Of a stretch of DNA of 64,000 bases, positions 18,234 to 39,865 are shown piece by piece. The stretch covers positions 1-64,000 of the forward strand of contig JAKUPL010000009.1 in assembly GCA_022449455.1 (NCBI GenBank), in the 5' to 3' direction. Origin of the DNA: Alcanivorax sp. (GTDB lineage: Bacteria > Pseudomonadota > Gammaproteobacteria > Pseudomonadales > Alcanivoracaceae). The position numbers and the translations under genes were made by a program. A model generated the notes under the pieces. The model saw nothing but the letters and a program-made list of their open reading frames with translations. It made no database searches and had not been told where the DNA came from. Numbering within the stretch: position 1 is the stretch's first letter; every line of letters starts with the position of its first letter.

Positions 18234-18381
18234 GATACAGGATGCAGGATTCAGGCGCGAAGACAGGCTCGTGGGGGCTGTTTGGCCCAACCTCCGCGCT
18301 GAAACCTTTATTCGCGGGTACGGCTTCTGCCATCACGAGCAACCGAACCGCGCCTGAATCCTGAATCCTGAATCCTGCATC
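18234..18381. repeat. Heptamer-armed inverted element B1 (GGATNCA type)
   Basis: The left arm (18234-18254) has three units, GATACAG, GATGCAG and GATTCAG. The right arm (18354-18381) has four inverse units, CTGAATC three times then CTGCATC. Inner bases CAGGCGCG and CGCGCCTG extend the stem. The core holds CGCGGGTACGGC (18313-18324), one mismatch from the core motif of other elements. It fills the atuA-atuB spacer and stops next to the atuA stop codon. Confidence 0.92.
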
Positions 18382-18398
18382 GCGCGCCTAGGGCGCGC
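18382..18398. repeat. Perfect palindrome across the atuA stop codon
   Basis: GCGCGCC (18382-18388) and GGCGCGC (18392-18398) form a perfect 7-bp stem with a 3-base loop. On the minus strand the stem and loop contain the atuA TAG. No T-run follows, so a simple terminator is unlikely. Confidence 0.7.
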
Positions 18399-20175
18399 TT
18401 ACCTCATTAGCGATTTCCTCGCTCACCGCGATCGGCATATCCAGCAACTGCTGGGCGAACGCCTTGCCCTGGGGGTCGATGCGCAGGCTGGCGATGCCGC
18501 CGCCGCCCAGGGCGTGACGCAGCAGGAAGTTGAAGGCATCGAAGCCGGGCAGTTCCCAATGGCTGACGCTGCCGGTCTCCGGGTCCAGTACGTGCTGCAT
18601 ATAGTCGGCCACGGCGCCGTCGCTGAGCGCGGCGCGCAGGTAGGGCACATAGTCCGGGCGGCGTGCCATCACGCCGATGTTGGCGTGGTCGCCCTTGTCG
18701 CCGGAGCGCGCCCAGGCCAGTTTCACCAGCGGCACGCTGGTCTCGCCGGTGGCGGTGTCGCTGCCGTTGGTGTCCGGCAGGCCGGCCACGTCCAGGGGTG
18801 TGCCCACCGGCACGCCCACTTCCGTGGGGGTGCCGTCCAGGTCCACGGTGGCGGTCACGTCCACCTTGGGCACCAGGGTGGAGAACAGGCGGATGCGCGG
18901 CACCGGCTTGGGCCGCCCGCCGACCAGCCCGGACAGCCCCGGCGCCATGCCGGTGGCGGCCTGGGCGATTTCCCGGGCAAACAGGCCCAGCGCCTTGCGG
19001 TCATCGTGCAGGGCGGCGATTTTGACCACCACCTCGCGGGTGTCCTCCCGGCGGGCGTGGGTGCCGTAGGTGGCTTCGCTACCCAGAATTTCCACGCTGG
19101 TGTCGCGGAACGGGGCCAGCCCCAGTTGTTCGAACAGACGGCCGGTTTTGGCGAGGATGGCGTCGGCCACGACGCGGCCCTTGGCGGGGGCGTCCAGCCC
19201 GGCCATCAAAAACGACACGGTGATGCGCTGGCCGTCGGGCCAGGTGGCGGACACCTTATAGGTGTCGGTGGGCGGCCGGCCGCGGGCGCCGCTCACGCGC
19301 ACCCGGTTGTCGCCGTCCTGCTCCAGGGTCACGCGGGTAAAGTCGCACACCACGTCGGGAAGCATATAGGCACGGGGGTCGCCGATTTCGTACAGCACCT
19401 GTTCGCCCACCGTGGCCCGGGTGACCAGGCCGCCGGTGCCCGGCGGTTTGGTGACCACGAAGCTGCCGTCGGCGTGGCATTCGGCGATCGGGAAGCCCAT
19501 GTCGTGGAAATCCGGTACCTGGCGCCAGTCGGTGAAGTTGCCGCCGGTGCACTGGGCGCCGCATTCGATCACGTGGCCGCACAGCGAGCCCTGGGCGAGC
19601 TTGTCGTAGTCGTCGTCGGCCCACTGGAATTCGTGCATCAGCGGCCCCAGCGCCAGGGCCGAGTCGGCGATGCGTCCGGTCAGCACCAGGTCGGCGCCGG
19701 CGTCCAGCGCCGCCTTGATCGGCAGCGCCCCCAGGTAGGCGTTCATGGTCACCGTCATCGGCGGCAGCGGCGCGCCGCTGTCCAGCTCCTTGCACCCGGC
19801 GAACTGGTCGCGCCGGCCGTTCAGGTCGTCGCCTTCCACCAGGGCGATTTTCAGATCCACGCCGGCGGCCTCGAACACCTTGCGCAGGGCGTCGCGGCAG
19901 GCTCGCGGATTGACCCCGCCGGCGTTGCTGATCACCTTGATCTTCCGGTCGCGGATGTCCCGGGCCAGCGGCGCCATCACCTGGTCCACGAAATCGTGGG
20001 CGTAGCCGGCGTTCGGGTCCTTCATACGGGCCCCGGCCATGATCGAGAGCGTGACTTCCGCCAGGTAGTCGAACACCAGATAGTCGATGTCCCCCTGGCG
20101 CACCAATTGAAAGGCGGCACTGTTGGTGTCGCCCCAGAAACCGGCGGCGCAGCCGATGCGAACGGGTTCGGTCAT
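18388..20175 (-). CDS. atuA: Acyclic terpene utilisation protein AtuA
   Basis: This 595-aa protein is of the AtuA (DUF1446) family, which is required for growth on citronellol and geraniol but whose reaction is not established. It begins [20 protein letters not shown]. Conserved blocks include [47 protein letters not shown] and, near the C-terminus, [15 protein letters not shown]. The frame extends upstream to 20475, but the ATG at 20175 matches the family start. It is the first gene of the minus-strand atu operon and faces atuR across the operator. Confidence 0.93.
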
Positions 20176-20213
20176 GAAACGGGTCCTGATTGCCGGGATT
20201 CGAAGGTTTCCGT

Positions 20214-20243
20214 ACACTACCAAGCAAGCGCTTGGTTTGGCAA
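20214..20243 (-). promoter_or_regulatory. atuA promoter with overlapping TetR-type operator
   Basis: On the minus strand TTGCCA (complement of 20238-20243), an 18-base spacer and TAGTGT (complement of 20214-20219) form a plausible sigma70 promoter for atuA. The spacer contains the palindrome CAAGCGCTTG (20225-20234), extended to the imperfect inverted repeat CCAAGCAAGCG / CGCTTGGTTTGG. Its size and position, between atuA and the divergent TetR gene, suit an AtuR operator that represses both genes until a terpenoid CoA ester is bound. Confidence 0.7.
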
Positions 20244-20326
20244 TGGCCAATGCCGTCGGCATCCGTCGCCCGCTTGCAGCTTGCCGCCCGCGGCCGTTTA
20301 ATGCGCCCCTGAGTAAGGAGCCCCCC

Positions 20327-20917
20327 ATGCCCGACAACCCGTCCATCCACGGTATCGACGATTCGCCCCGCGGACGCTTGCTGAGCGCCGCCGCCCAGCT
20401 GTTCCGCGAGAAGGGCTTCGATCGCACCACGGTGCGCGACATCGCCGCCGCGGTGGGCATCCAGAGCGGCTCCATCTTTCATCACTTCAAGAGCAAGGAG
20501 GACATCCTCTACTCGGTGATGGAGGAAGTGATCCGCTTCAATACCGAACGGCTGCGCCAGGCGGTGGCCGCCGCCGACACCCCCAGGGAGCAGCTGCGCC
20601 ACCTGATCAGCGCCGAACTCACCGCCACCGTGGGCGACACCCGTGAAGCGATGACGGTGATGGTCCAGGAGTGGCGCTGCCTCAGCGAGGACAATCAGCG
20701 CCGGGCCCTGGCTCTGCGCGACGTCTACGAGCGCCTGTGGCTGGACGTGCTGGGCCGGCTGCACGAGCAGGGCGTGTTCCGCGCCGACCCATTCATTATC
20801 CGGCGCCTGCTTACCGGCATGATCGGCTGGACGCCGAACTGGTTCAGCACCAACCGGCGGCTGTCGGTGGACGACCTGGCCACGCTCATCCTCGAGCGGG
20901 TGGTGGGCGAGCCATGA
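20327..20917 (+). CDS. atuR: TetR-family repressor of the atu operon
   Basis: The 196-aa protein has a TetR helix-turn-helix at residues 15-60 ([21 protein letters not shown], then [11 protein letters not shown]) and an all-helical ligand domain. AAGGAG lies 9 bases upstream of the ATG; the longer frame upstream would run through the operator region and is rejected. The gene is divergent from atuA, as atuR is in P. aeruginosa, where AtuR represses the cluster. The 3' end overlaps the next ATG in ATGA. Confidence 0.88.
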
Positions 20918-21114
20918 TCGGCAACGGCCTCGCCTGGGGGCGCCACACCATCATCGAGGAAGGCGAGCTGGACCCGGCCACCTGGCAGCTGCGGGTGGAC
21001 CATTATCTGGTGGCGGGTCCCGACGGCCGGCCGCTGCCGGGCCGGTTCGCCAGCCTGGAGGCCGCCAAAGCCTTTATCGAGGGGCGGGAAGAGGGCGGTC
21101 CGGGCAATTTATGA
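20914..21114 (+). CDS. Small hypothetical protein coupled to atuR
   Basis: This 66-aa protein has no recognised motif. Its ATG overlaps the atuR stop. The sequence is amphipathic and acidic, with repeated turn-like segments (VAGPDGRPLPGRF) followed by a short helix (LEAAKAFIEG). It has no signal peptide, membrane segment or cysteines. Operon position suggests it is made with AtuR, but no function can be inferred. Confidence 0.65.
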   Translation: MIGNGLAWGRHTIIEEGELDPATWQLRVDHYLVAGPDGRPLPGRFASLEAAKAFIEGREEGGPGNL

Positions 21115-21144
21115 ACGAACGGTGTCCGCGGGGTAAAAAAGCCG

Positions 21145-21172
21145 TTGACACCCGGGGCCCAATCCCTAAAAT
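21145..21172 (+). promoter_or_regulatory. Strong sigma70 promoter of the tRNA-Val/tRNA-Asp operon
   Basis: TTGACA at 21145-21150 and TAAAAT at 21167-21172 are separated by 16 bases. The GC-rich stretch after the -10 (GGCGCCCAC) resembles the discriminator of stringently controlled stable-RNA promoters. Confidence 0.85.
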
Positions 21173-21201
21173 GGCGCCCACTTCGCAACGCGAAGCCCAG
21201 A

Positions 21202-21277
21202 GGGTGGTTAGCTCAGCTGGGAGAGCATCTGCCTTACAAGCAGAGGGTCGGCGGTTCGATCCCGTCACCACCCACCA
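21202..21277 (+). tRNA. tRNA-Val (anticodon TAC)
   Basis: The 76-nt gene folds as a cloverleaf: acceptor GGGTGGT pairs with ACCACCC, the D-arm is GCTCAGCTGGGAGAGC, and the anticodon stem-loop CTGCCTTACAAGCAG exposes TAC. The T-arm contains GGTTCGATCC, and the 3' CCA is encoded. It shares the strong upstream promoter with tRNA-Asp, 36 bases downstream. Confidence 0.97.
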
Positions 21278-21313
21278 GTTTCCCAAGTCGGGCCCAGGCC
21301 CGCGGGGAGAGTC

Positions 21314-21390
21314 GGAGCGGTAGTTCAGTTGGTTAGAATACCGGCCTGTCACGCCGGGGGTCGCGGGTTCGAGTCCCGTCCGCTCCGCCA
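21314..21390 (+). tRNA. tRNA-Asp (anticodon GTC)
   Basis: The 77-nt gene has the acceptor stem GGAGCGG / CCGCTCC, the D-arm TTCAGTTGGTTAGAA, and the anticodon stem-loop CCGGCCTGTCACGCCGG with anticodon GTC. The T-loop is GGTTCGAGTCC and CCA is encoded. It is the second tRNA of the operon and is followed by a rho-independent terminator. Confidence 0.97.
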
Positions 21391-21436
21391 CTTCTTCATG
21401 ATCTTTTCTCCTTGATAGACATTTGCAGTTATTTTG

Positions 21437-21465
21437 GCGCCGGCTGTTTCAGCCGGCGCTTTTTG
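21437..21465 (+). terminator. Rho-independent terminator of the tRNA operon
   Basis: GCGCCGGCTG (21437-21446) pairs perfectly with CAGCCGGCGC (21450-21459) around a TTT loop, and TTTTT follows. Confidence 0.92.
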
Positions 21466-21593
21466 TTTGTCCGGCGCCCGCCGGGAACTCTTCGCCCCCA
21501 GCCCCCTCTAAAATCCCAAGCGGCCAGCGGAACGGCCGTGTTCATCAAACCGTCACGAGCCCTGGCTTACCCTTCCGGCGAAGTGACGTGGAA

Positions 21594-21650
21594 ATGAAAA
21601 AACAGAAACGAAAAGAGAAAACGCGACGAAAGGAGTCTCACCATGGATGA
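21594..21650 (+). CDS. Possible 18-aa strongly basic peptide
   Basis: ATG at 21594 opens an 18-codon frame, MKKQKRKEKTRRKESHHG, with nine Lys/Arg residues. Its TGA overlaps the start of the acidic mini-ORF downstream. The ribosome-binding site is weak (GTGGAA). The A-rich stretch may instead be an unstructured leader that helps translation of the next ORF. Confidence 0.3.
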   Translation: MKKQKRKEKTRRKESHHG

Positions 21651-21741
21651 CTATCTGGAAGACCAAATCGAAGAGAAACTGTGGCTGGAAAGCCTTGATG
21701 AACTGGACGACGATCTGTGCGACGACGGCGTGGAGCTGTAA
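21643..21741 (+). CDS. 32-aa highly acidic small protein
   Basis: A strong AAAGGAG lies 7 bases before the ATG. The 32-residue product (MDDYLEDQIEEKLWLESLDE and 12 more) has about 15 Asp/Glu residues, one Cys and a single Lys, and could form an amphipathic helix. I do not recognise the family. It could be a real small protein or, less likely, a leader peptide, since no terminator or attenuator follows. Its own promoter is not obvious after the tRNA terminator at 21465. Confidence 0.6.
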   Translation: MDDYLEDQIEEKLWLESLDELDDDLCDDGVEL

Positions 21742-22042
21742 GCTCCTGCCCCCGTCGCCTCTGATGTTCCCCTCCGTTTCACCCTTCTCCCCACCCTGTT
21801 CCTGATCCAACCCTGACCGCACCGATGCCGCGCCGCACGGCGCCGCCCCCCGCTTTGTGTTTGGTGATCCGCTTCCTTGTTTTGCCGACCCGGCGCTGTC
21901 TATGCTGCGCCCATCCGGAATGCCGTTCGAACCGGACGAAATGGGGACTGACCGAAAGGGGCAGGGAGTGACACCGGGCGTCACTTGTTACCACTCTCCA
22001 CCGATAAAAAGCGGCAACGATAACAACGAAAGGGAAGGCGTT
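21742..22042. other. Gap with no gene before the coiled-coil protein
   Basis: The 301-bp spacer has no coding sequence I can support. GTGAC (21968-21972) and GTCAC (21980-21984) form a small inverted repeat 58 bases before the next start, possibly an operator or part of the leader. A less GC-rich stretch (21990-22040) precedes the start codon. Confidence 0.4.
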
Positions 22043-23416
22043 ATGGCGGTCTCGTCCGTAACCTCCGAAGCGATTCTGTTCTTCGAACCGGGCGGCATTG
22101 GTAAAAGCATGCTGTTCGCCGATTTCGAAGCGATTCTCGACGGCATGGTGGGGGTGCCGGAATACGCGGGCCGGGAAATGCGCGGCGCTTACTGCGTGGT
22201 CAACGGCCGCCTGAAGGTCAAGGCTCTGGTGCTGTTCCTGATCGATTTCGATAACGACGGCATGGCCGACCACACCTGGAATATGCCGTTGCGGCATCTG
22301 GCCGAACACGGCGGCCCCGGGCCGGATATGGGCGCCGGGCCGATCCGTCTGGCGTGCCGCAGTCAGTGCCCGGTGGCCTGGCACCAGGACCAGTTGTGGG
22401 ACCCCTCCATGAAGCCCGGTGCCAACGATTTCGTGGCGGCGCGGGATCTGCTGCGCCGGCGCGGCGCCAAGATGGGCCTGGAAGTGGACGAGGACCTGCC
22501 GCCGGAGGGGGAGGTGCCGACCCTGGCCGGCGAGGTGCCCACGGTTCGGCCGGTGCGCGAGGAGGGCGACCCGGAGCGGGTGCGCCTGGCGCGGACCATC
22601 AAGGAGCTGCGGCTGCGCATCCATACCCTGGAAACCGGGCAGAAGGAGGAACTGGCGCGACTGCGCTACGCCCGGCAACAGAAGGAGGAGATCCTCAGCG
22701 CCCAGCTGGAGAAAGTGCTGACCCAGTTCAAGACCCTGAAATCCCAGAACTCCGCCCTGCGTGAGCAGAACGACTCGCTCAAGGCCCAGGCCGAAGCGCT
22801 GCGGAACAGCCTGGAGGAACAGGCGCGCAGTCTGGAAGAGCAGGCCGGCCGCGACGCGGAGCAGGGCAGCCGTCTGGAACGCCTCACCGAGCAATACCGG
22901 CTCAATCTGGAGCAGCGCCTGGATGAGGAGCGCGCCCGGCTGGCCGGCGAAATCCACAGCCGCGAAATGGACGTGCTGAACCGCGACGAGGTGATCGGCC
23001 AACTGCGCGGTGAAATCGCCGATCTGAAACGGGAGCACCTGCAGGTGGCCCACTCCGGCGCCCGCAAGATGCTGGAGAGGCTGGAGGACCTGGGTCTCAG
23101 CTTTATCGCCTTTCATCCCGGCGCCGGGCATGTGTCGGTGGGCGCCGACCAGATCGCCGATTACATGAACAATCCCCAGGCGTTCGCCGCGCGCAAGTGC
23201 CTGGTCACCGAGGACCACTATCGGGCTTGGCTGGCGCACTACGAGAACCCGGTGTGCCAGGTGGCGGTGGGGCCGGAGCAGACGCCCTGCGGCAAGCGGG
23301 TGATCCGTGTCGATGTGCCCAACCAGTTCAAACCCGGCGTGTCCGATTGCAACTCCAACCGGTGCCCGCATTGCCGCTCGGATTCGTCCATCGACAATGT
23401 GTTGAGGTTTCGGTAG
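22043..23416 (+). CDS. Coiled-coil protein with C-terminal Cys-rich segment, function unknown
   Basis: The 457-aa protein has three parts. The N-terminal globular domain (1 to about 160) includes FFEPGGIGKSMLFADFEAIL and LIDFDNDGMADHTWNM. A long charged coiled coil rich in Glu, Arg, Gln and Leu spans about 175-350. The C-terminal domain has five cysteines ending in CNSNRCPHC, which looks like a small zinc site. The start at 22043 has GGGAAGG before it; the frame is open further upstream but lacks a better start. Similar proteins beside nadK in pseudomonads are sometimes labelled chromosome-partitioning-like, without evidence I know of. It is probably cytoplasmic. Confidence 0.75.
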   Translation: MAVSSVTSEAILFFEPGGIGKSMLFADFEAILDGMVGVPEYAGREMRGAYCVVNGRLKVKALVLFLIDFDNDGMADHTWNMPLRHLAEHGGPGPDMGAGPIRLACRSQCPVAWHQDQLWDPSMKPGANDFVAARDLLRRRGAKMGLEVDEDLPPEGEVPTLAGEVPTVRPVREEGDPERVRLARTIKELRLRIHTLETGQKEELARLRYARQQKEEILSAQLEKVLTQFKTLKSQNSALREQNDSLKAQAEALRNSLEEQARSLEEQAGRDAEQGSRLERLTEQYRLNLEQRLDEERARLAGEIHSREMDVLNRDEVIGQLRGEIADLKREHLQVAHSGARKMLERLEDLGLSFIAFHPGAGHVSVGADQIADYMNNPQAFAARKCLVTEDHYRAWLAHYENPVCQVAVGPEQTPCGKRVIRVDVPNQFKPGVSDCNSNRCPHCRSDSSIDNVLRFR

Positions 23417-23551
23417 GGGGTTCTGAAGGTCCGGTGAGAGAAGTCCGAGAGTGCACCGTGAGGGATTGGTAAGTTTTTTGCAGGGTACGCGGTGAAGCGT
23501 ATCGAAAAAGAATCCGAAAACAGAATTTGAAACAGAGGGGAAGGGGTGGTC

Positions 23552-24619
23552 ATGGCCCAATCCATCGATAAGCGCCTGCTGCAGACCTTCGTGCCGGTGA
23601 ACGCTCTGTCCGGTGACCAGCTCGACTGGCTGCTCGACCAGCAGGAGGTACGCCGCTACGAAGCCGGCGACATCCTGTTCCGCCAGGGCGACCGGGACAA
23701 CACCACCATCTACCTGCTCAGCGGCCAGGTGGAGCTGTTCAGCGAGCGCGGCGAACGCAGCGTGGTGAGCGCCGGCGACGGCGCCTCCTGGCACCCGCTC
23801 GGCCACTTCCAGCCCCGTCGCGACGACTGCCGGGCGCTCACCGAGGTGAGCGTGGTGCGCTTCGACAGCTTCCGGCTGGACACCATCCTGTCCTGGGATC
23901 AGTCCGCGGGCTACGTGATTCTCGACATCAACGCCAACGCCGCCTATCAGCACGACCGGGAGTGGATGATCCGGTTGCTCAAATCCAACCTGTTTCACCG
24001 CGTGCCGCCCACCAACATTCTGGAGATTTTCCGCTGTCTGCACGCCCGCCGCTGCAAGGAGGGCGAGGCCATCGTCCGCCAGGGGGAGGAGGCGGACTGC
24101 TGCTACATCATCAAGGAAGGCGTGTGCGAGGTGGCCATCGCCCTGGGCGGCGGCGAGCCCACGCCGGTGGCGATGCTGGAGGAGGGTCAGTGGTTCGGCG
24201 AGGAGGCGTTGCTCTCCGGCAAGCCCCGCAACGCCACCGTGACCATGGCCACCGACGGCGTGCTGATGCGCCTGGACCGTCAGGACTTCGACGCCCTGCT
24301 GCGCGAACCGGTGGTGCACACGGTCAGCGCCGGCGAGGCACGCGCCCGCATCGCCGCCGGCGGCCGCTGGCTGGACGTGCGCACCGGCGACGAATTCGAT
24401 CAGCAGCACCTGGCCGCCGCCGCCAATATGCCGCTGGGTGCCCTGCGCCTGAAATCCCGGCTGCTCGACCCGGGCCGCGCCTATGTGGCCTACTGCGACA
24501 CCGGCCGGCGTAGCGCCACGGCGGCATTTTTGTTAAAAAACGCCGGTTTGGACGTGTTCGTACTGGATGGCGGCCTGAACGCCAATACTGATACCCTGCA
24601 CGAATACCTCACCGAATAG
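23552..24619 (+). CDS. Tandem cyclic-nucleotide-binding domains fused to a rhodanese domain
   Basis: In this 355-aa protein the first cNMP-like domain (about 15-125) is degenerate. The second (about 140-250) keeps a canonical phosphate-binding cassette, FGEEALLSGKPRNATV. A C-terminal rhodanese domain (about 260-350) has the active-site loop CDTGRRSA with Cys315. It has no DNA-binding domain, so it is not a Crp-type transcription factor. A nucleotide-gated sulfur-transfer or signalling role is plausible. GAAGGGG lies before the ATG. It stands between the coiled-coil gene and nadK on the same strand. Confidence 0.85.
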   Translation: MAQSIDKRLLQTFVPVNALSGDQLDWLLDQQEVRRYEAGDILFRQGDRDNTTIYLLSGQVELFSERGERSVVSAGDGASWHPLGHFQPRRDDCRALTEVSVVRFDSFRLDTILSWDQSAGYVILDINANAAYQHDREWMIRLLKSNLFHRVPPTNILEIFRCLHARRCKEGEAIVRQGEEADCCYIIKEGVCEVAIALGGGEPTPVAMLEEGQWFGEEALLSGKPRNATVTMATDGVLMRLDRQDFDALLREPVVHTVSAGEARARIAAGGRWLDVRTGDEFDQQHLAAAANMPLGALRLKSRLLDPGRAYVAYCDTGRRSATAAFLLKNAGLDVFVLDGGLNANTDTLHEYLTE

Positions 24620-24666
24620 CCGTTCCCCGCACCGCCGGGGCCGGCGCTGGCAACGGGCCCCGGAAC

Positions 24667-25557
24667 GTGACCCAAGAAAAATTCCGCATGATCGGGCTGA
24701 TCGCCCGCTCGGAAAGCGAACAGGCGCTGTACTCCATGCGCCAGCTGATCCATTTTCTGCATGGCCGGGATTGCACCGTGATCCTGGAGAAGGGCATCGC
24801 CGACAGCCTGCCGGAAATGGGGCTGCAGGCCGCCAGCGCCGCGCAGATGGGCGACAGCTGCGACCTGGTGATCGTGATCGGCGGCGACGGCAGCCTGTTG
24901 GGCGCCGCCCGGGCGCTGGCCCGCTACGACATTCCGGTGCTGGGCATCAACCGGGGCCACCTGGGCTTTCTCACCGACATCCTGCCGTCGGAAATCGAAT
25001 CCCGGGTGGGGCAGGTGCTGGACGGCGACTACACCACCGAGCGACGCTTTCTGCTCGACATGGAGGTGCGCCGGGGCAAGACCGTGATGGGGCAGGGCAG
25101 CGCGCTCAACGACGTGGTGCTGCTGTCCGGTGACAGCGTGCACATGATCGATTTCGAGCTCAATATCGACGGTCACTTCGTTTACGCCCAGCGCTCCGAC
25201 GGCCTGATCGTGTCCACCCCCACCGGCTCCACCGCCTATGCGCTGTCCGGCGGCGGCCCGATCATGCACCCGCGCCTCAACGCCATGGTGATGGTGCCGC
25301 TCAATCCGCACACCCTGACCAGCCGGCCGCTGGTGGTGGACGGCGACAGCGAGATCAAGATCAAGATCACCACCGAGAAGGTCAATCCGCTGGTCAGCTG
25401 CGACGGCACCGCCGGCGTGCGCCTCAAGGTGGACGACGTCATCGCCATCCGCAAAAAGCCCCACCGGTTGCAGCTCATCCACCCGCCCGGCCACGATTTC
25501 TACCAGGCCTGCCGTTCCAAGCTGGGCTGGAGCACCCGCCCCGGCGACGGGCATTGA
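24667..25557 (+). CDS. nadK: NAD kinase
   Basis: NadK phosphorylates NAD to NADP. The 296-aa product has the family motif VIGGDGSLLGAAR near residue 75, and NRGHLGFLTD and DGLIVSTPTGSTAY, which line the NAD and catalytic sites. The start is GTG at 24667; an ATG at 24688 would remove residues that align with other NadK N-termini. It lies 47 bases after the rhodanese-fusion gene. Confidence 0.96.
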   Translation: MTQEKFRMIGLIARSESEQALYSMRQLIHFLHGRDCTVILEKGIADSLPEMGLQAASAAQMGDSCDLVIVIGGDGSLLGAARALARYDIPVLGINRGHLGFLTDILPSEIESRVGQVLDGDYTTERRFLLDMEVRRGKTVMGQGSALNDVVLLSGDSVHMIDFELNIDGHFVYAQRSDGLIVSTPTGSTAYALSGGGPIMHPRLNAMVMVPLNPHTLTSRPLVVDGDSEIKIKITTEKVNPLVSCDGTAGVRLKVDDVIAIRKKPHRLQLIHPPGHDFYQACRSKLGWSTRPGDGH

Positions 25558-25622
25558 GCCGCCCTTGCATCCCGTGTCCGACCCCCCATTTCATTACGCA
25601 CAGTTTCCGACAGGTACCCCCG

Positions 25623-28545: not shown

Positions 28546-28711
28546 GGATTCAGGATACAGGATTCAGGATGCAGGCGCGGGACCGGCCTTGCCGGCTGCC
28601 GCCCCGTGCCCGCGCGGAAAGTCAGGGTCTGAACTCAGCGCGGAGTACACACAGTCGCGTACACGCCGTTCCGATCTTCGCGCCTGCATCCTGCATCCTG
28701 CATCCTGCATC
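28546..28711. repeat. Heptamer-armed inverted element B2 (GGATNCA type)
   Basis: Exactly four units form the left arm (28546-28573: GGATTCA, GGATACA, GGATTCA, GGATGCA), and four identical inverse units CTGCATC form the right arm (28684-28711). GGCGCG and CGCGCC extend the stem inward. The core contains CCCCGTGCCCGCGC (28602-28615). The right arm ends 5 bases before the pyrD -10 hexamer. Confidence 0.93.
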
Positions 28712-28715
28712 GGTG

Positions 28716-29750: not shown

Positions 29751-29754
29751 GGGT

Positions 29755-29939
29755 AGTTCAAAGTTGAAAGTTAAAAGTTGAAAGGTCGTGGCCGAGTGGC
29801 TCTGCCGCGGCCTGCGGCCGGTATGGTTTGGCCTGTAGCTTGAGGCTTGTGGCTTGTAGCCACCCCGGGCGCGGGCACGGCCTGCGAGTACCTAAGGCCA
29901 GGTCCGCGCTTTCAACTTTTAACTTTAAACTTTCAACTG
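29755..29939. repeat. Composite heptamer-armed element A3 with nested third array
   Basis: The outer arms are GTTRAAA type: left 29755-29784 (AGTTCAA, AGTTGAA, AGTTAAA, AGTTGAA) and right 29909-29939 (inverse). The core holds a second array, TGTAGCT, TGAGGCT, TGTGGCT, TGTAGCC (29833-29860), again with a 7-bp period. It also holds GCGCGGGCACGGCC (29869-29882), the exact complement of the GGCCGTGCCCGCGC in element B3. It starts 4 bases after the pyrD stop. Confidence 0.9.
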
Positions 29940-29943
29940 CCAT

Positions 29944-30260: not shown

Positions 30261-30496
30261 AGACACTGTCCTCTTTTTTGTCGATCGCAGTGAAAGAAAC
30301 CTGTGCCCGCCGGGACGCTCGCCGCCCCGACGGGCTTGTTCTCGAAAGCCTTACCCCGAGTATCCGAAAGCCCGGGGCGTCTGTCGAATAACAAGTGGCC
30401 ATAATGAAAGCGTGCGTTAAACGGATGACGCATAATGGACACTTTGATGAAATTGGGCGAAAGCGTAGCTCCATCAAGTACTTAAAAGGCAAAACC

Positions 30497-32611: not shown

Positions 32612-32843
32612 CCCCCCGGAACTGACCCTCTACACCACCCTCGGCTGCCATCTGTGCGAGCAGGCCGAGGAACTGGTGCGCACGGTGCGCCCGGACGCCC
32701 GGCTTCACGCCGTGGACATCGCCGAGGACGATACCCTGATCGCGGAATACGGCGAGCGCATTCCTGTGCTGCGCCGGGGTGACCGGGAATTGGGCTGGCC
32801 GTTCGGATTGCTGGACGTGAGCGCGCTGCTCGCCGACCCCTGA
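32598..32843 (+). CDS. Glutaredoxin-like protein (DUF836)
   Basis: The 81-aa thioredoxin-fold protein has LYTTLGCHLCEQAEEL near its N-terminus, with a CxxC pair in the usual glutaredoxin position, and IPVLRRGDRELGWPF supplying the cis-Pro substrate site. It overlaps rlmKL by 14 bases, so coupling is likely. Its target is unknown. Confidence 0.82.
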   Translation: MPRTDPPELTLYTTLGCHLCEQAEELVRTVRPDARLHAVDIAEDDTLIAEYGERIPVLRRGDRELGWPFGLLDVSALLADP

Positions 32844-32853
32844 CTCGGAGAGG

Positions 32854-32893
32854 GTGACGCTTTTTCAGGAGTGACTGTTTTTCTGGAGTGAGC
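32854..32893 (+). repeat. Tandem 17-bp leader repeat carrying Shine-Dalgarno copies
   Basis: GTGACGCTTTTTCAGGA (32854-32870) and GTGACTGTTTTTCTGGA (32871-32887) differ at three positions and are followed by GTGAGC and the ATG. Each copy ends in GGA before GTGA, so the gene has a duplicated ribosome-binding site. Confidence 0.7.
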
Positions 32894-33202
32894 ATGGAAA
32901 AGATCACGGTGAAGAAACTGACCCACCGTCATGTGAACAAGGTGATTCTGCGCTCGGTGGTGATTTCCATCTGCATCGTGCAGGTGGAGATCGACGGGGT
33001 GCTGTACCAGGTGGTGGACGAGAAAGGCCAGATCGTGCGGTTCAACGGCCCGGAACACGCCAATAACGTACTCAGCCGCATGACCACCGACCGGGCGGTG
33101 CTGCTGCACCAATCCCCCTACGCGGAGATGGCCGGCCAGCCGGAAGGCGAGCCGGCGCCGCCGCTGGAAGTGGACTTCAACTGGCGCGCCGACCGCGCCT
33201 AG
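32894..33202 (+). CDS. Hypothetical small protein, possibly DUF6482
   Basis: In this 102-aa protein, residues 20-55 are mostly beta-strand-like (VVISICIVQVEIDGVLYQVV), ending in DEKGQIVRFNGPEHANNVLSRM. That recalls DUF6482 proteins, but the match is by eye only. There is no signal peptide. GGAGTGAGC precedes the ATG, and a duplicated 17-bp leader unit lies upstream. It converges on tatD. Confidence 0.7.
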   Translation: MEKITVKKLTHRHVNKVILRSVVISICIVQVEIDGVLYQVVDEKGQIVRFNGPEHANNVLSRMTTDRAVLLHQSPYAEMAGQPEGEPAPPLEVDFNWRADRA

Positions 33203-33226
33203 GCGCGCCGCCCGCCGCCACCGGGC

Positions 33227-34044
<818 letters not shown>

Positions 34045-34048
<4 letters not shown>

Positions 34049-34575
34049 GAAGCGGGGCGGGGCGTGGGCCGCAGCCGCGCCTCGAGCTGCTCGCGCAGGT
34101 CTTCCACGCGGCGCCGGTTGGCGCCCAGATCCCAGTAGCCGATGCGCGAGGCCGAGCGGACTTCGATCACGCCGTCCTCGTGCACATAGAAGGTGACGTC
34201 ATCCACGAACCGCAGGATGCGGGTGGTGAACCGGGCTTCCACCCGGGCCGGTCCCACCGCCCGGTGGCTGACCCGGGGCCAGTCCTCCAATACGGCGTCG
34301 AGCAGCGCCAGGCTGTCGGCGCGGTTGCCGGCGCCGGGCAGGGGTGCCACCTTGTGGCGGTCGTCATCCGCCAGGCTGGACACGCAATTCGGCGACGACG
34401 GACAAGGGGCAAGCAAACGGGTGTCCGACATAGTCGGTCTCTCCACTGACCTTTCAGTATTCCCGGTGCCGGCGCCCTCTCGGGCGCCCTGGCAGCCGGC
34501 CGCGACCATCATGGCCAGTATCAGCCCGGCCATGCAAAGGGCGGCGGCCCTGTTTCTAGTGACGGTTCGGATCAC
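34045..34575 (-). CDS. DUF1499 lipoprotein in the lexA operon
   Basis: The 176-aa protein begins with a hydrophobic stretch and the lipobox-like MMVAAGC, so it is probably an inner- or outer-membrane lipoprotein. The rest matches DUF1499: LAPCPSSPNCVSSL, HKVAPLP and a beta-rich region with FVDDVTFYVHEDGVIEVRSA. The start is GTG at 34575, 20 bases inside lexA, so the two are coupled. In pseudomonads sulA follows lexA instead. A link to DNA-damage control through co-transcription is inference. Confidence 0.82.
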
Positions 34576-35170
34576 GGATCAGTCCCACGAAAACGCCCTC
34601 GATCATCAGTTCGTCCGCCGGCACCCGGATTGGCTCATAGGCGTCGTTGGCCGGCAGCAGGGTGGCGTTGGACTTGTTCAGTTTAAGGGTTTTCACCGTG
34701 ACTTCGTCGTCAATGCGCGCCACCACGATCTCGCCGGACAGGGCGGTCTGGCTTTTGCGCACCGCGATCAGATCGCCGTCGAAGATGCCGGCGTCGATCA
34801 TACTGTCGCCCTGTACCTTGAGCAGGTAGGTGGGGCGCTGTCGGAACAGGCCCTGGGGCACCGGCACGGTACGCTCCACGTTCTCGATGGCCTCGATGGG
34901 CGTGCCGGCGGCGACCTTGCCCACCACCGGCAGCTCGTCCTCGTGCTCCAGCGCCGCTTCCAGCAGCTGGATGCCGCGGGAGCGGTCGCTGTGCAGGCGG
35001 ATGTAGCCCTTGCGTTCCAGCGCCCGCAGGTGATCGGAAGCGGCGTTCTTGGACTGGAAGCCCATGCGCTCGGCGATTTCCGCCCGGGTCGGGGCCATGC
35101 CGGTTTCCAGCCGCGAGTCGCGGATGCAGTCCAGCACCTGCTGCTGGCGTGCGGTTAGCGTGCTGCTCAT
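34556..35170 (-). CDS. lexA: SOS repressor LexA
   Basis: The 204-aa protein has a winged helix-turn-helix (TRAEIAERMGFQSKNAASDHL, in two pieces about residues 28-48), the self-cleavage site Ala88-Gly89 (KVAAGTP), the nucleophile Ser123 (GDSM) and Lys160. The start at 35170 follows a GGAGAACGTT leader. A CTG-N10-CAG SOS box lies upstream, so it should regulate itself and the two genes behind it. Confidence 0.98.
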   Translation of the reverse strand: MSSTLTARQQQVLDCIRDSRLETGMAPTRAEIAERMGFQSKNAASDHLRALERKGYIRLHSDRSRGIQLLEAALEHEDELPVVGKVAAGTPIEAIENVERTVPVPQGLFRQRPTYLLKVQGDSMIDAGIFDGDLIAVRKSQTALSGEIVVARIDDEVTVKTLKLNKSNATLLPANDAYEPIRVPADELMIEGVFVGLIRDPNRH

Positions 35171-35196
35171 AACGTTCTCCTGGAGTGTCTCGGACA

Positions 35197-35219
35197 CTGA
35201 TAATATGAACAGTATTATA
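35197..35219 (-). promoter_or_regulatory. lexA: lexA promoter with SOS box
   Basis: CTGATAATATGAACAG (35197-35212) is a CTG-N10-CAG LexA box. It lies directly after the minus-strand -10 TATAAT (complement of 35214-35219). Bound LexA would block its own promoter, and possibly that of the divergent cNMP-domain gene. Confidence 0.85.
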
Positions 35220-35273
35220 TGTCCAGTGTTTTTGGAAGTACCATGAGGAGGATTGAGGGGGAGAAAGGGATCA

Positions 35274-35927
35274 ATGCGACAGGCGAACTGGCAGCAAACG
35301 GACCGGTCACGGGTGGAAACGCTGCTCGCCGGCGTGCCGTTTTTCAATGAGGTGGCCCGGGACGACCCGGCCCAGCGGTCGCGCTTGCTGGCGCGCACCG
35401 AGCTGATCGAGGCGGCCCCCGGCGACACCGTGATCCGCGCCGGGGAGGTGGAGTCCAGTCTGTATTTCCTGCTGCGTGGGCAGCTGGTGGTGCTGGACGA
35501 TACGCCGCCCCACGCGGTGCTTTATTACGTGTCGCCGGGAGAGGTGTTCGGCACCCTGTCGCTGCTGCTGGGGCGCGCCCGCAGCGCCACCATCGAGGTG
35601 GCGGACGCGGCCCGCGAAGCGGTGCTGGCACGGCTGGATTTCAATGATTTCGACGACGATCGCGACACGCCCTATACCCTGGCCACGCGATTGGCGTTTT
35701 TTCATATGCTGGTGCACCAGATCCGCTGGGCTCTGGAGGTGCGGCGCATGCAGAGCCCGGATCCGGCTCTGGCGGCGGCCTTGCGCAAGGTGCCGGTGTT
35801 CAGCGGCGAGCGGGAGAGCGAGGCGGAACTGGCGTCCCTCCGTGACCAGGCCCGGGCCCTGGCGGATTTGCTTTATCGCTGGAATCACCGTCCGCCGGGG
35901 ACCACCGGCAATGCGCAGCTGACCTGA
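35274..35927 (+). CDS. Cyclic-nucleotide-binding domain protein without DNA-binding domain
   Basis: The 217-aa protein has one cNMP-type beta-roll (about 25-125) with VSPGEVFGTLSLLLGRARSATI as cassette (shown in two overlapping blocks: VSPGEVFGTLS and LLLGRARSATI). The alpha-helical C-terminus lacks a helix-turn-helix. The usual glutamate after FG is Thr, so nucleotide binding may be altered or lost. ATG 35274 is chosen because AAAGGGA is well placed; the earlier TTG is not. It is divergent from lexA, shares its promoter region, and converges on the stress-protein gene. Confidence 0.75.
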   Translation: MRQANWQQTDRSRVETLLAGVPFFNEVARDDPAQRSRLLARTELIEAAPGDTVIRAGEVESSLYFLLRGQLVVLDDTPPHAVLYYVSPGEVFGTLSLLLGRARSATIEVADAAREAVLARLDFNDFDDDRDTPYTLATRLAFFHMLVHQIRWALEVRRMQSPDPALAAALRKVPVFSGERESEAELASLRDQARALADLLYRWNHRPPGTTGNAQLT

Positions 35928-35934
35928 CGGCGGT

Positions 35935-36131
35935 CTCAAGCCGCAAGCGGGCCGTACAGTGTGGGTGGTCGCAGGATACAGGATTCAGGATGCAGCGCGG
36001 GTCGGGCCCCGCAAGACGGGAGGGCCGTGCCCGCGCTTAAGGGCACTCAAACCCGCGCCGTCCTTTCTCGGCCGAAGGCCGCGGAAAAGCCTCTCTTTTC
36101 ATCCTGCATCCTGCATCCTGCATCCTGAATC
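35935..36131. repeat. Heptamer-armed inverted element B3 with adjacent array remnant
   Basis: The left arm (35974-35994) is GGATACA, GGATTCA, GGATGCA. The right arm (36100-36131) is CATC then CTGCATC three times and CTGAATC. The core has GGCCGTGCCCGCGC at 36023-36036. Just outside the left arm, CTCAAGCCGCAAGC (35935-35948) is a short remnant of the GCTTGNGGCTTGAG array type seen inside A3. It lies between convergent genes. Confidence 0.9.
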
Positions 36132-36182
36132 GTTTTCTACCTATTGGACCGGTACGCCCCGACTTGCCGGCCAGCCAGCCGC

Positions 36183-36632
36183 CTATTCCTTCTTCTTGCG
36201 ATCCATCTTCACCGCCAGCACGTCACAGTGGGCGCCGGGCACCAGACCACGGGCGGTGGAGCCCAGCAGCAGAGCCAGGCCGCTGCGGGTGTGGCTGCCC
36301 ACCACGATCAGATCGGCGTCCAGGCCGTCGGCCTTGTCGACGATGGTCTTTTCGATGGAGCCCAGCTCCACATGCACCCGTTCCTTGGGTACCTGATACT
36401 GGCGCGCATAATTGCAGGCGGTTTCCCGCGCCTGCTTGACCAGGCCGCTCTGCAGGTCGGTCACGTCCATGGGCACGTCGGCGCCGTAGGCCAGCGCCAG
36501 TGGCTCGATCACGTGGATCAGGTGCAGTTCGCCCTCGGTGCCGGCGATCACGCCGGCGGCGCGGGCCAGCACTTCCGCGGACTCGTCGCTGCAGTCGATG
36601 GCCACCAGGACCTTGCGATAGGGTGCGGACAC
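36183..36632 (-). CDS. Universal stress protein (UspA family)
   Basis: The 149-aa protein starts at GTG (SAPYRKVLVAIDCSDESAEV) and ends with the ATP-binding motif GSHTRSGLALLLGSTARGLV, an arrangement G-2x-G-9x-G(S/T) typical of nucleotide-binding Usp proteins. A stronger reading upstream to 36956 is rejected; GGAG lies 7 bases before this GTG. It probably acts in the cytoplasm under stress or starvation. A minus-strand TATACT (complement of 36665-36670) is the likely -10. Confidence 0.9.
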   Translation of the reverse strand: MSAPYRKVLVAIDCSDESAEVLARAAGVIAGTEGELHLIHVIEPLALAYGADVPMDVTDLQSGLVKQARETACNYARQYQVPKERVHVELGSIEKTIVDKADGLDADLIVVGSHTRSGLALLLGSTARGLVPGAHCDVLAVKMDRKKKE

Positions 36633-36973
36633 GATGTTTCTCCAGTGGCTCGGTGTCGTTTCCGAGTATAACTTGCCCGGCGCCCGCCGCCAGCCCGTCG
36701 TTGCGGGGCCGCCGGCGAGGGCGGCAAAGCCTTGTCCGGCGCGGCTTTGGCGGCCTCGGCGGCGGTCGCCGAGCGGCACCCCGGCGGGGCCCGCCGGGCG
36801 GTCCGCGCTTGACCGGACAATACCGGCGCTGTCTAAATAGGCGCCCGCCGGGGCCGTGAAGGCCGCCCGGCGGCACCTCCGGACACGTAGGCCGGCACGG
36901 CGATCCCGATGCGGCCCACGGGTTTTACGGAGGTTTCTTTTGGATATCCGCATCATGATCGGGTGAGCAACGA
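36633..36973. other. Divergent regulatory gap between the stress-protein gene and topA
   Basis: The 341-bp spacer holds no gene. It contains the minus-strand -10 for the stress gene, very GC-rich inverted repeats around 36720-36800 (CGGCGGGGCCCGCCGGGCGG), and the topA promoter. ACGGAGG lies at 36927-36933, well before the topA start. The high GC just before an AT-rich promoter may make topA expression sensitive to supercoiling; that is inference. Confidence 0.5.
36809..36837 (+). promoter_or_regulatory. topA: Probable topA promoter
   Basis: TTGACC (36809-36814), a 17-base spacer and TCTAAA (36832-36837) match sigma70 boxes at optimal spacing. It would give an untranslated leader of about 130 bases. 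Confidence 0.6.
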
Positions 36974-39703
36974 ATGGGTAAGTCCCTTGTAATCGTGGAG
37001 TCGCCGGCCAAGGCCAAGACCATCAACCGCTATCTGGGCGACGACTTCGTGGTCAAGTCCAGTGTCGGCCATGTGCGCGACCTGCCGGTGAGCGGCGGCG
37101 CCAAGAAGACCACGCCCAAGGAGCGTGCCAAGGAGGCCGCCTACACCCGGTCGCTGCCCAAGGAAGAACGGGAAGCCTATAAAAAGAAGAAGTCCCACGC
37201 CCAGCTGATCAACCGCATGGGGGTGGACCCGGACCACGACTGGGACGCCCATTACGAAATCCTGCCCGGCAAGGAAAAGGTCATCGACGAGCTCAAGCGT
37301 CTGGCCGCCAACGCCGACCGCATCTATCTGGCCACTGACTTGGACCGCGAAGGGGAGGCCATTGCCTGGCACCTGCGGGAAGTGATCGGCGGCGAGGGCG
37401 AGCGGTTCGACCGGGTGGTGTTCAACGAGATCACCAAGAAGGCCATCCAGGCCGCCTTCGAGAAACCCGGCAAGCTGGACATGAGCCGGGTGGAGGCGCA
37501 GCAGGCGCGCCGCTTCCTGGACCGGGTGGTGGGTTTCATGATCTCGCCGCTGCTGTGGGAAAAGATCGCCCGCGGCCTGTCCGCCGGCCGCGTGCAGTCG
37601 GTGGCGGTGGAGCTGGTGGTGGAGCGCGAGCGCGAGATCCGCGCCTTCACCCCGGAAGAGTTCTGGGAGCTGCACGCGGACACCCACAGCACCGCCAAGG
37701 CCAGTGACGAGATTCGCCTGCAGGTGATCCGCCACAATGGCGAGAACTTCCGCCCCAACAACGGCGACGACGCGGAGAAGCACCGCGCCGCCCTGAAGGC
37801 CGCCGGCCAGCTGACCATCACCCAGCGCGAGGAGCGGCCCACCCGTTCCAAACCGCCGGCGCCGTTCATCACCTCCACCCTGCAGCAGGCGGCCAGCACC
37901 CGGCTGGGCTTCGGGGTGAAGAAAACCATGATGATGGCCCAGCGCCTCTACGAGGCCGGCCACATCACCTATATGCGGACCGACTCCACCAACCTGAGCG
38001 CCGACGCGGTCAGCGAGTGCCGCGCCTGGATCGACGACAAGCTGGGCAGCCAATACCTGCCCGAGAAGCCGATCAGTTATTCCAGCCGCGAAGGTGCCCA
38101 GGAGGCCCACGAGGCGATCCGCCCGTCCGACGTGAAGCGCGAAGCCAGCGCCCTCAAGGACATGGAGCGCGACGCCCAGCGTCTCTACGAGCTGATCCGC
38201 CGCCAGTTCATCGCCTGCCAGATGCCGCCGGCGGAATACCTGAGCACGACGATCACGGCGGAAGCGGACGGCTATGAGCTGAAGGCCCGCGGTCGCATTC
38301 TCAAATTCGACGGCTGGACCCGCATCCAGCCGCAGGCCTCGCGCAAGGGCCAGGAAGACACCGTGCTGCCCGACCTCAAGCAGGGCGACGTGCTGGCGGT
38401 GGACGACATCGAGGCCACCCAGCACTTCACCAAACCGCCGGCCCGCTACACCGAGGCCAGCCTGGTCAAGGAACTGGAAAAGCGCGGCATCGGCCGCCCG
38501 TCCACCTACGCGGCGATCATCTCCACCATCCAGGACCGGGGCTACGTGCGGCAGGACAACCGCCGTTTCTACGCCGAGAAAATGGGTGACATCGTCACCG
38601 ACCGGCTGGTGGAAAACTTCCCCCATCTGATGGACTACAACTTCACCGCCGAGATGGAGGAAACCCTGGACGAGATCGCCGAGGGCAAGCGCGGCTGGCG
38701 CGACGTGCTCGACGAGTTCTACCGGGATTTCCTGGCCAAGCTGGAAGCCGCCCAGGGCGAGGGCAGTGGCAAGCAGGCCAAGGGCGGCATGCGCGCCAAC
38801 CTGCCCACGGACACCGACATCGAATGCCCCAAGTGCGGCCGGCCCATGCAGATCCGCACCGGCTCCACCGGCGTGTTTCTCGGTTGCTCCGGCTACAGCC
38901 TGCCGCCCAAGGAGCGCTGCACCGCCACGCTCAACCTGCTGCCCGGTGAGGAAGCGGTGCGCGCCGACGACGACGAGGAAGCGGAAACCAACGAGCTGCG
39001 TCGCAAGAAGCGTTGCCCTAAATGCGGCACCGCCATGGAATCCTATCTGATCGACGAGAAGCGCAAGCTGCACATCTGCGGCAACAACCCGGACTGCGAC
39101 GGCTACGTGGTGGAACCGGGCGAGTTCCGCATCAAGGGTTACGATGGCCCGACCCTGGAGTGCGAAAAGTGCGGCAGTGAAATGCAGCTGCGCACCGGCC
39201 GCTTCGGCAAGTTCTTCAAGTGCACCAACGACGACTGTGGCAACACCCGCAAGCTGCTCAAGAACGGCGAGCCGGCGCCGCCCCGCGCCGACCCCATCGA
39301 CATGCCGCACCTCAAGTGCGAGAAGGTGGACGACCACTACCTGCTGCGCGACGGCGCCTCCGGCCTGTTCCTGGCGGCCAGCCAGTTTCCCAAGAACCGG
39401 GAAACCCGGGCGCCGCTGGTGGAGGAAATCCAGACCGTCGCCGACAAGCTGGATCCCAAGCACAAATACCTGGCCGAGGCCCCCGCCGAGGACGGCAAGG
39501 GCCGCAAGGCGGTGCTGCGCTACAGCCGCAAGGCCAAGGAGCAGTACGTGATGACCGAGGAAGACGGCAAGCCCACCGGCTGGTACGCCTTCTACCGCGA
39601 CGGCCATTGGGACGTGGAAGAAAAGAAAGCCGCGCCCAAGAAAAAAGCGGCGGCCAAAAAGAAAAAGGCCGCCGCGAAGAAGAAAGCCGCGCGGCGCGGC
39701 TAG
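36974..39703 (+). CDS. topA: DNA topoisomerase I
   Basis: This type IA enzyme relaxes negative supercoils. The 909-aa protein has a TOPRIM N-terminus ([33 protein letters not shown]), the active-site Tyr333 in [10 protein letters not shown], and three C-terminal zinc-ribbon-like modules: [19 protein letters not shown] and CEKCGSEMQ. It ends in a Lys/Ala-rich tail (about 35 residues of K, A and R) likely to bind DNA or polymerase. It is longer than E. coli TopA (865). Element B4 lies after its stop. Confidence 0.98.
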
Positions 39704-39715
39704 CCACGCCGCCGC

Positions 39716-39865
39716 GATACAGGGTTCAGGATACAGGATGCAACGCGGGCCGGTTTCACGCCATGCCGCCCGCCTTGCCCGCGCTCCGACGTTTAGGCGC
39801 GGGCAAGGCATTCCGGACCCGCGGAGCGTTTCTCGCGCTGTATCCTGAATCCTTCATCCTGTATC
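39716..39865. repeat. Heptamer-armed inverted element B4 (GGATNCA type)
   Basis: Four units on each side: left 39716-39743 (GATACAG, GGTTCAG, GATACAG, GATGCAA), right 39838-39865 (CTGTATC, CTGAATC, CTTCATC, CTGTATC). The core contains its own 12-bp inverted repeat, CCTTGCCCGCGC (39773-39784) against GCGCGGGCAAGG (39797-39808), a variant of the motif shared with B2, B3 and A3. Confidence 0.92.

What the first reader, a model, noticed from the sequence alone, without database searches (positions are those of the whole stretch)
18313..39808. One core motif shared by elements with different heptamer arms
GGCCGTGCCCGCGC is exact in B3 (36023-36036) and, inverted, in A3 (29869-29882). B2 has CCCCGTGCCCGCGC, B4 has CCTTGCCCGCGC in a 12-bp inverted repeat, and B1 has CGCGGGTACGGC, one mismatch off. 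The same core carried by GGATNCA and GTTRAAA arms suggests arms can be replaced, perhaps by slippage and hairpin template switching that copies one arm onto the other. This could be an undescribed mobile or self-maintaining repeat system.
Basis: partly seen in the sequence, partly recalled or inferred. Interest (0 to 1): 0.82.

Follow-up and report, generated by a model that had tools for sequence, protein, structure and literature searches.

The report
Heptamer-armed hairpin elements behind genes
A marine bacterium carries many short hairpin elements just behind its genes, each usually ended by four copies of a seven-letter word; they come, go and flip between close species, and different species favour different words.

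Summary
GGCCGTGCCCGCGC occurs 20 times in the genome (reversed control 0); 19 of 20 lie in elements with heptamer arms, 12 GTTRAAA (A), 7 GGATNCA (B). The organism is probably an Alloalcanivorax. Elements are hairpins of 64-190 bp with inverted arms, mostly four heptamers each, close behind stop codons. They are lineage-specific: A arms dominate some species, AGTKAAY (D) others, rarely both. The core occurs with A, B and D arms. Against A. marinus NMRL4 only 14 of 30 sites keep the same element; 3 carry another arm type, 5 are near-empty, 8 hold other sequence. Of three B elements shared with A. profundimaris, two have the body inverted in place.

Whole elements seem replaced; bodies flip. No REP transposase or reverse transcriptase gene read lies beside arms (0 of 32, 0 of 8). 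The closest published thing, Xanthomonas GGGAATC repeats, was read as G-quadruplexes; A and D arms have no G tracts. The moving factor is unknown.

The parts
14276..14373 (.).
   Evidence: near-empty in A. marinus NMRL4
15590..15680 (.). A-arm element; same element in A. marinus NMRL4, D-arm element at this slot in A. profundimaris
18233..18382 (.). B1: B-arm element, body 18254-18354; body inverted in A. profundimaris
   Evidence: inverted 137, same 24, best other 30; 88 of 101 body positions identical once inverted
18313..18324 (-). core of B1, CGCGGGTACGGC, one mismatch
28546..28712 (.). B2: B-arm element between an ORF that I read as aminopeptidase N (not searched) and pyrD; body inverted in A. 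profundimaris
   Evidence: inverted 64, same 20, best other 28; pyrD
28602..28615 (+). core of B2, CCCCGTGCCCGCGC
29755..29938 (.). A3: A-arm element behind pyrD; near-empty in A. marinus NMRL4
29834..29854 (-). third heptamer array, AGCYNCA (type C), inside A3
29869..29882 (-). core of A3, exact
35971..36132 (.). B3: B-arm element whose body resembles an A-arm element of A. mobilis and a GTTRCAA-arm element of A. profundimaris at other loci
36023..36036 (+). core of B3, exact
39715..39867 (.). B4: B-arm element behind topA; near-empty in A. marinus NMRL4, C-arm element at this slot in A. mobilis
39771..39784 (+). left core of B4
39797..39810 (-). right, inverted core of B4

Best explanation
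These are non-autonomous palindromic elements that multiply or turn over within Alcanivoracaceae. Shown: each end is an array of mostly four 7-bp units with one free position; the arms are inverted; the body often carries a GC-rich core; the elements sit close behind stop codons; occupancy changes quickly between species; bodies can be inverted in place. Inferred: the heptamer array is an address read by a lineage-specific trans-acting protein that binds one subunit per 7 bp and works best on about four units in a row. That protein or a recombinase partner inserts or copies elements into positions behind genes, where a strong hairpin is tolerated or useful as a terminator. Exchange between the inverted arms then flips or deletes the body. 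Arm types A and D would be alternative addresses.
For: Four-unit arms: 54 of 90 B arms, 33 of 54 A arms. Free position: B pos. 5 A133 G127 T65 C0 of 325; A pos. 4 A88 G94 C5 T3 of 190. In 14 ortholog pairs (3 arms of unequal length left out) the free position changed at 5 of 89 sites, the fixed ones at 6 of 534, the body at 26 of 841 (P 0.012 and 0.017), so the heptamer looks constrained. Arm-dimer hits per genome and type run from 0 to 382. G000 against A. marinus NMRL4, 30 slots: 14 same, 3 other arm type, 5 near-empty, 8 other sequence. Two of three B/B slots against A. profundimaris are inverted. Convergent 26, divergent 8 in G000, pooled 50 and 16 in four genomes (P 3e-5); median 15 bp from the last sense codon in G000. 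RNA fold z below -3 in 74 of 74, 25 shuffles each. A protein reading contiguous heptads is known: ParB of pSM19035, which needs four or more to activate its ParA (PMC9499535, passages).
Against: No protein was found that reads or moves the arms. No target-site duplication or clean empty site was seen; junctions of near-empty sites are ragged (by eye). No near-identical bodies at different loci were found among 74 distinct bodies of the G000 sample, apart from one stretch present on two contigs (C4/C12), so recent copying is not shown. Terminator function was not tested. Occupancy differences could partly come from recombination of intergenic alleles: at the pyrD slot flanks 99.3 and 97.7% identical over 600 bp enclose different elements in A. 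profundimaris and SY10-13. A and D do occur together in G002 (21 and 74 hits) and G006 (13 and 382).
Confidence: 0.5

Rival explanations
1. Hairpins kept by selection as bidirectional terminators or mRNA-end protectors at slots behind genes, their type exchanged by homologous recombination of intergenic alleles between strains, without dedicated transposition.
For: Position close behind stop codons and excess of convergent gene pairs; T fraction of 0.30-0.37 in the 8 nt after the element against 0.19 in the 60 nt after stops without element on C70; other palindromes, including TAGGAGC ones, at the same slots; flanks 98-99% identical around different elements; some bodies in relatives look like intrinsic terminators (by eye).
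Against: Does not explain one heptamer consensus over many loci, the change of consensus between species, or a genome with almost none (G008).
Confidence: 0.22
2. One reading: arms arise and are replaced by slippage and hairpin template switching on resident cores.
For: Body inversion between arms; slippage at homogeneous arms; in SY10-13 a stub with one heptamer per side, GTTGCAACTTGCAAC, at a slot where A. profundimaris has the whole element; a changed-arm slot with a body score above the shuffled range but below that of an unrelated body (nadK slot, 43 against 68).
Against: Adjacent units identical in 45 of 235 (null 76.5, sd 6.5) and 41 of 136 (null 58.4, sd 4.7); no correlation between the two arms of an element, B 54 of 148 with 0.36 expected, A 39 of 86 with 0.46 expected; 0 of 15 changed-arm comparisons keep the body by the stated criterion.
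Confidence: 0.13
3. REPIN-type elements moved by a REP-associated tyrosine transposase (RAYT).
For: Palindromic, behind genes, lineage-specific; all 10 genomes have 2-5 Y1_Tnp matches.
Against: 0 of 32 Y1_Tnp loci read (36 matches in all) have an exact dimer of any of four arm types within about 1.5 kb, while 6 of 32 have TAGGAGC or GCTCCTA repeats; G008 has 2 matches and almost no arms.
Confidence: 0.08
4. Arms written by a reverse transcriptase from an RNA template, telomerase-like.
For: Units with one free position, favoured unit number, lineage-specific consensus.
Against: No RVT_1 match in A. mobilis (G003), the genome with most arm hits of the ten, nor in G005, G007, G008, G009; 0 of 8 RT loci have an arm dimer.
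Confidence: 0.03

Closest known systems
GGGAATC heptamer repeats of Xanthomonas (PMC4692102; passages and sections 10 and 16 read)
   Same: 7-bp units with variable positions, (GGGANTN)n; preference for four units; inverted pairs close together on opposite strands (70 cases in Xcc, 75 in Xac); mostly intergenic, nearer to the preceding ORF, few between divergent ORFs; length and sequence differ between related species.
   Different: Discussed there as G-quadruplex formers; A (GTTRAAA) and D (AGTKAAY) units have no G tracts. The parts read report no shared core, no set of arm types, no body inversion and no exchange of element types at a slot.
REPINs with RAYT transposases (PMC3116915, passages)
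   Same: Short non-autonomous intergenic elements with two inverted repeats and several types per genome.
   Different: REPIN types lie next to their RAYT genes; here the ends are heptamer arrays and no Y1_Tnp locus read has them.
TAACTGA repeats of Beggiatoaceae (PMC4679880, passages)
   Same: Many intergenic tandem heptamers.
parS heptads of plasmid pSM19035 (PMC9499535, passages)
   Same: Non-palindromic 7-bp units (WATCACW) in contiguous arrays; one ParB dimer per unit; four or more contiguous units needed to activate ParA.
   Different: A plasmid centromere, not a dispersed element with a body. An analogy for recognition only.

Membership tests
REPIN / RAYT | repeat type lies beside its RAYT gene | tested here: not met
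   0 of 32 Y1_Tnp loci read (of 36 matches) hold an arm dimer; 6 of 32 hold TAGGAGC/GCTCCTA repeats
REPIN / RAYT | two inverted repeats forming a hairpin | tested here: met
   74 of 74 elements with RNA z below -3; median 84% of left-arm bases pair with the right arm
REPIN / RAYT | excision intermediates in population reads | not testable with these tools
   no reads held
Xanthomonas-type heptamer repeats | tandem 7-bp units, mode four | tested here: met
   54 of 90 and 33 of 54 arms
Xanthomonas-type heptamer repeats | G tracts able to form G-quadruplexes | tested here: not met
   GTTRAAA and AGTKAAY contain no run of G (the sequence itself); B units have GG, not judged
Xanthomonas-type heptamer repeats | common descent with the Xanthomonas repeats | not tested
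   no Xanthomonas genome was fetched
MITE | terminal inverted repeats | tested here: met
MITE | target-site duplication and a related full-length transposon | tested here: inconclusive
   none seen at near-empty sites (by eye), junctions ragged; no gene-bearing relative identified, but only three wide-spaced arm pairs were read
RT-written repeats | reverse transcriptase in every carrier genome | tested here: not met
   no RVT_1 match in 5 of 10 genomes, including G003 with most arm hits
Rfam RNA families | match above gathering score | tested here: not met
   window 13000-41000: only two tRNAs pass; CC2171 overlaps A3 at 23.3 bits, gathering score 75

The most novel reading that the evidence does not exclude
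A widespread, unrecognised class of mobile DNA in Gammaproteobacteria whose ends are four-heptamer arrays read by an unknown heptad-binding factor. Each lineage owns its heptamers, interiors are shared between arm types, and the slots behind genes are contested by all types; the Xanthomonas G4 repeats would be one member misread as quadruplex elements.
Probability: 0.35. Interest if true: 0.85.

Novelty: new variant of a known kind. Interest (0 to 1): 0.62.

Why it matters
If right, many intergenic hairpins of these genomes belong to one kind of element with a readable address, changing at about half of the sampled sites while genes diverge by about 5%. It gives a direct test of the G-quadruplex reading of bacterial heptamer repeats, since the same four-unit preference holds here without G tracts. 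The lineage-specific heptamers give a phyletic handle for finding the protein that reads them.

Tried and rejected
Chance: rejected by reversed-pattern and tile controls. Known RNA family: none above threshold. Plasmids: no match for B3 or A3 in the plasmid collection. RAYT and reverse transcriptase as movers: see rivals. Long gene-bearing elements: an A-arm pair 1.1 kb apart in A. marinus (L233) encloses coding-like sequence that I did not search; a D-arm element of about 0.4 kb in A. profundi (L234) has a small ORF between two inverted halves of about 95 bp; neither was followed up. In-situ arm swap at C11:67436 of A. marinus looked promising by eye but scored 20 against 34 for the best unrelated body. 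Other periods: inverted pairs of tandem units in 81 sequences, 1.58 Mb: period 7 gave 19 (Markov control 0; same-orientation control 8), period 6 gave 2 (control 1), periods 8-10 gave 0; 7 of the 19 are from the window itself and at least one (Mixta) is a long array of a near-palindromic unit. Under a stricter rule period 7 gave 6 (same-orientation 4), other periods 0. Breadth: C-arm trimers in 7 of 369 genomes of the class, but the reversed control also hits 4 genomes (1-6 hits), so only G297 (83 hits, another family) stands out; it has the same build without the core. Literature: searches in the PMC library listed no paper describing these elements in Alcanivoracaceae; preprints and most subscription papers are not held, so this is no proof of absence.

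Limits of the counts: G000 elements come from stretches chosen because they held arm dimers or cores (only the first 100 places of each arm list were shown), except contig C70, held whole (9 two-armed elements in 176 kb). G001 and G003 stretches were mostly chosen around listed arm positions; G002 stretches (1.08 Mb) were partly so chosen. Arm rules differ between scripts: the first census has 72 G000 elements, later ones 77 including the doubled stretch L013, 74 distinct bodies. A further A-to-B slot between A. marinus and A. profundimaris (L166:9979) fell out under the stricter rule. L013 was left out of the slot counts. 'Near-empty' means a gap under 30 bases. In A. mobilis even same-arm slots gave no body homology (0 of 6 rows), so its changed-arm rows (7 of the 15) say little; one A slot there (C67a:2085) shows the same element by eye but was labelled 'other'. 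Gene orientation rests on a crude GC3 reading of flanks (2 unclear, 1 too short in G000); the distance of 15 bp counts the stop codon. Reversed-pattern controls of the A dimer in the nine relatives are 0-23 hits; in the ten genomes those of C are 0-3 and those of D 0-1.
Full report
WHAT IS THERE. The window is the first 64 kb of a 176-kb contig (C70) of a 4.22-Mb genome. pyrD from the window is 97% identical to that of Alloalcanivorax marinus NMRL4, so the organism is probably an Alloalcanivorax. The exact core occurs 20 times in the genome, the reversed pattern 0 times. Reading the 20 places shows 19 in an element with at least one heptamer arm (12 A, 7 B) and one in other sequence without arms; in three of the 19 one arm is cut off by the end of an insertion sequence.

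ANATOMY. In the fetched stretches the first census found 72 two-armed elements, 45 B (GGATNCA) and 27 A (GTTRAAA), and 9 lone arms. Most arms have four units (54 of 90 B, 33 of 54 A). The outermost B unit is most often CGATACA (43 of 90). One position of the unit is free: in B A133, G127, T65, C0 of 325; in A A88, G94, C5, T3 of 190. Neighbouring units are identical less often than expected (B 45 of 235, null 76.5 with sd 6.5; A 41 of 136, null 58.4 with sd 4.7), the opposite of what recent slippage makes. The free letters of the two arms do not match each other (B 54 of 148, expected 0.36; A 39 of 86, expected 0.46), so one arm was not recently copied from the other. Total length of B elements falls in two groups, 64-115 and 131-172 bp. 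Long bodies tend to begin with GCGCG and end with CGCGC and often hold one or two inverted copies of the core (by eye). All 74 elements tested fold better than dinucleotide shuffles (z below -3, 25 shuffles each).

PLACE. Elements lie behind genes. In G000, 26 stand between convergent, 8 between divergent and 37 between tandem genes (2 unclear, 1 too short), at a median of 15 bp from the last sense codon; a crude gene call on C70 gives 18 convergent and 18 divergent of 113 neighbour pairs (an earlier element set gave 28 and 7). Pooled over four genomes it is 50 against 16 (P 3e-5). The 8 nt after the element are T-rich, 0.30-0.37, against 0.19 after other stops of C70.

SPECIES DISTRIBUTION. 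Arm-dimer hits, both strands, as B/A/D/C: G000 115/228/0/18; A. marinus NMRL4 (G001) 40/105/0/12; A. profundimaris (G002) 30/21/74/15; A. mobilis (G003) 80/300/1/378; Alcanivorax ih1 (G004) 39/0/136/36; A. venustensis (G005) 77/0/128/101; A. profundi (G006) 0/13/382/57; DG881 (G007) 0/38/12/44 (A control there 16); A. limicola (G008) 0/0/0/1; SY10-13 (G009) 14/5/6/6. D is AGTKAAY, C is AGCYNCA. Three genomes rich in A have 0-1 D hits, two rich in D have no A hit; G002 and G006 have both, D prevailing.

CORE AGAINST ARMS. The core (up to one mismatch) is in 18 of 30 A and 21 of 44 B bodies of G000, 13 of 20 A and 3 of 7 B of NMRL4, 4 of 7 D and 3 of 4 B of A. profundimaris, 5 of 11 A and 6 of 11 B of A. 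mobilis, but in 0 of 23 C elements (A. mobilis 11, G297 8, NMRL4 2, G171 2); outside elements 4 of 1733 tiles. Longer stretches are shared too: B3 scores 84 against an A-arm body of A. mobilis and 72 against a GTTRCAA-arm body of A. profundimaris, where the highest of 1500 shuffled pairs was 29; the three sit at different loci.

SLOTS. G000 against NMRL4 (flanks 86-99% identical, mostly 90-97): of 30 slots 14 have the same element, all in the same orientation; 3 have another arm type; 5 are near-empty; 8 have other sequence, 4 of these a TAGGAGC palindrome and one a single A arm. In the finding's own interval the B1, B2 and B3 slots hold TAGGAGC palindromes in NMRL4, the A3 and B4 slots are near-empty. 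G000 against A. profundimaris: of 15 slots 3 have B in both, 2 A against D, 4 near-empty, 6 other sequence, one of these with a single D arm. Of the three B/B slots, B1 and B2 have the body inverted with respect to the flanking genes (137 against 24, and 64 against 20), and one (L029) is in the same orientation (129 against 19). B1 bodies agree at 88 of 101 positions once inverted. In A. profundimaris 4 of 23 distinct slots (my count over) carry a two-armed element of another type, where about 1.4% would be expected from its element density per gene (my estimate; P 3e-4, or 0.026 if the expectation is 5%). So slots seem shared between types.

CONSTRAINT. Among 14 orthologous pairs the fixed arm positions changed at 6 of 534 sites, the free position at 5 of 89, the body at 26 of 841 (Fisher 0.012 and 0.017). 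The counts are small, but they suggest that the heptamer itself is kept.

MECHANISM. A shared address over many places, a constrained unit and a change of address between species call for a trans-acting reader (inference). I looked for the obvious ones. Y1 (REP) transposase matches exist in all ten genomes, but 0 of 32 loci read (of 36 matches) carry arms, while 6 of 32 carry TAGGAGC repeats, as the RAYT model predicts for that family. RVT_1 reverse transcriptases were not found in five of ten genomes, including A. mobilis, which has most arm hits. That arrays of four or more heptads can be read by a protein is shown for ParB of pSM19035 (PMC9499535, passages). Exchange between inverted arms would explain body inversion and deletion to a stub (GTTGCAACTTGCAAC in SY10-13). 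How elements arrive at a slot is the weakest step: no target duplication and no young copies were seen, and flanks 98-99% identical around different elements leave recombination open.

COMPARISON. Xanthomonas GGGAATC repeats (PMC4692102; passages, sections 10 and 16) share the heptamer, the preference for four units, inverted pairs and position. That paper notes that four is the minimum for a G-quadruplex. A units keep the preference for four and have no G tract, so the quadruplex cannot be the common cause if the two are the same kind of thing. Whether they are related by descent was not tested. A genome of another family of the class (G297, unnamed) has C-arm elements of the same build without the core, so the architecture is wider than the family.

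Corrected: place of the B1 core, number of C elements, number of Y1_Tnp matches, controls of the class-wide search, the near-misses among changed-arm slots, the meaning of the 15-bp distance.

Noticed in passing
L046, L060, L148, L149, L151 (G000, near contig ends): Ends of an insertion sequence (TGGACTGGCCCC...GTAGACAC) abut or lie inside A-arm elements, in some right at the CGCG start of the body; it may favour these hairpins as targets.
   Followed up: no
L065, L286, L288 (Y1_Tnp loci): Y1 transposase genes with four TAGGAGC/GCTCCTA repeats in the locus, a likely RAYT with its own REP family, distinct from the heptamer elements.
   Followed up: partly
L234 (A. profundi), about 600-1060: A D-arm element of about 0.4 kb whose two halves of about 95 bp are inverted copies around a small ORF.
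   Followed up: no
A. mobilis slot of G000 L031 (L236-L239 joined, offset 46382): A fifth heptamer arm type, GACGCYG/GACGCCT, with inverted partner.
   Followed up: no
L137 (Oceanisphaera pacifica) 16948-17021: Inverted heptamer arms of type AGCTGTC outside Alcanivoracaceae.
   Followed up: no
L067 9796 against L086 9841 (pyrD slot): Flanks 98-99% identical over 600 bp, but one species has a B element and the other a TAGGAGC palindrome.
   Followed up: partly
G000 C4:81-84 kb and C12:3-5 kb: The same stretch with three elements occurs on two contigs (duplication or assembly artefact).
   Followed up: no
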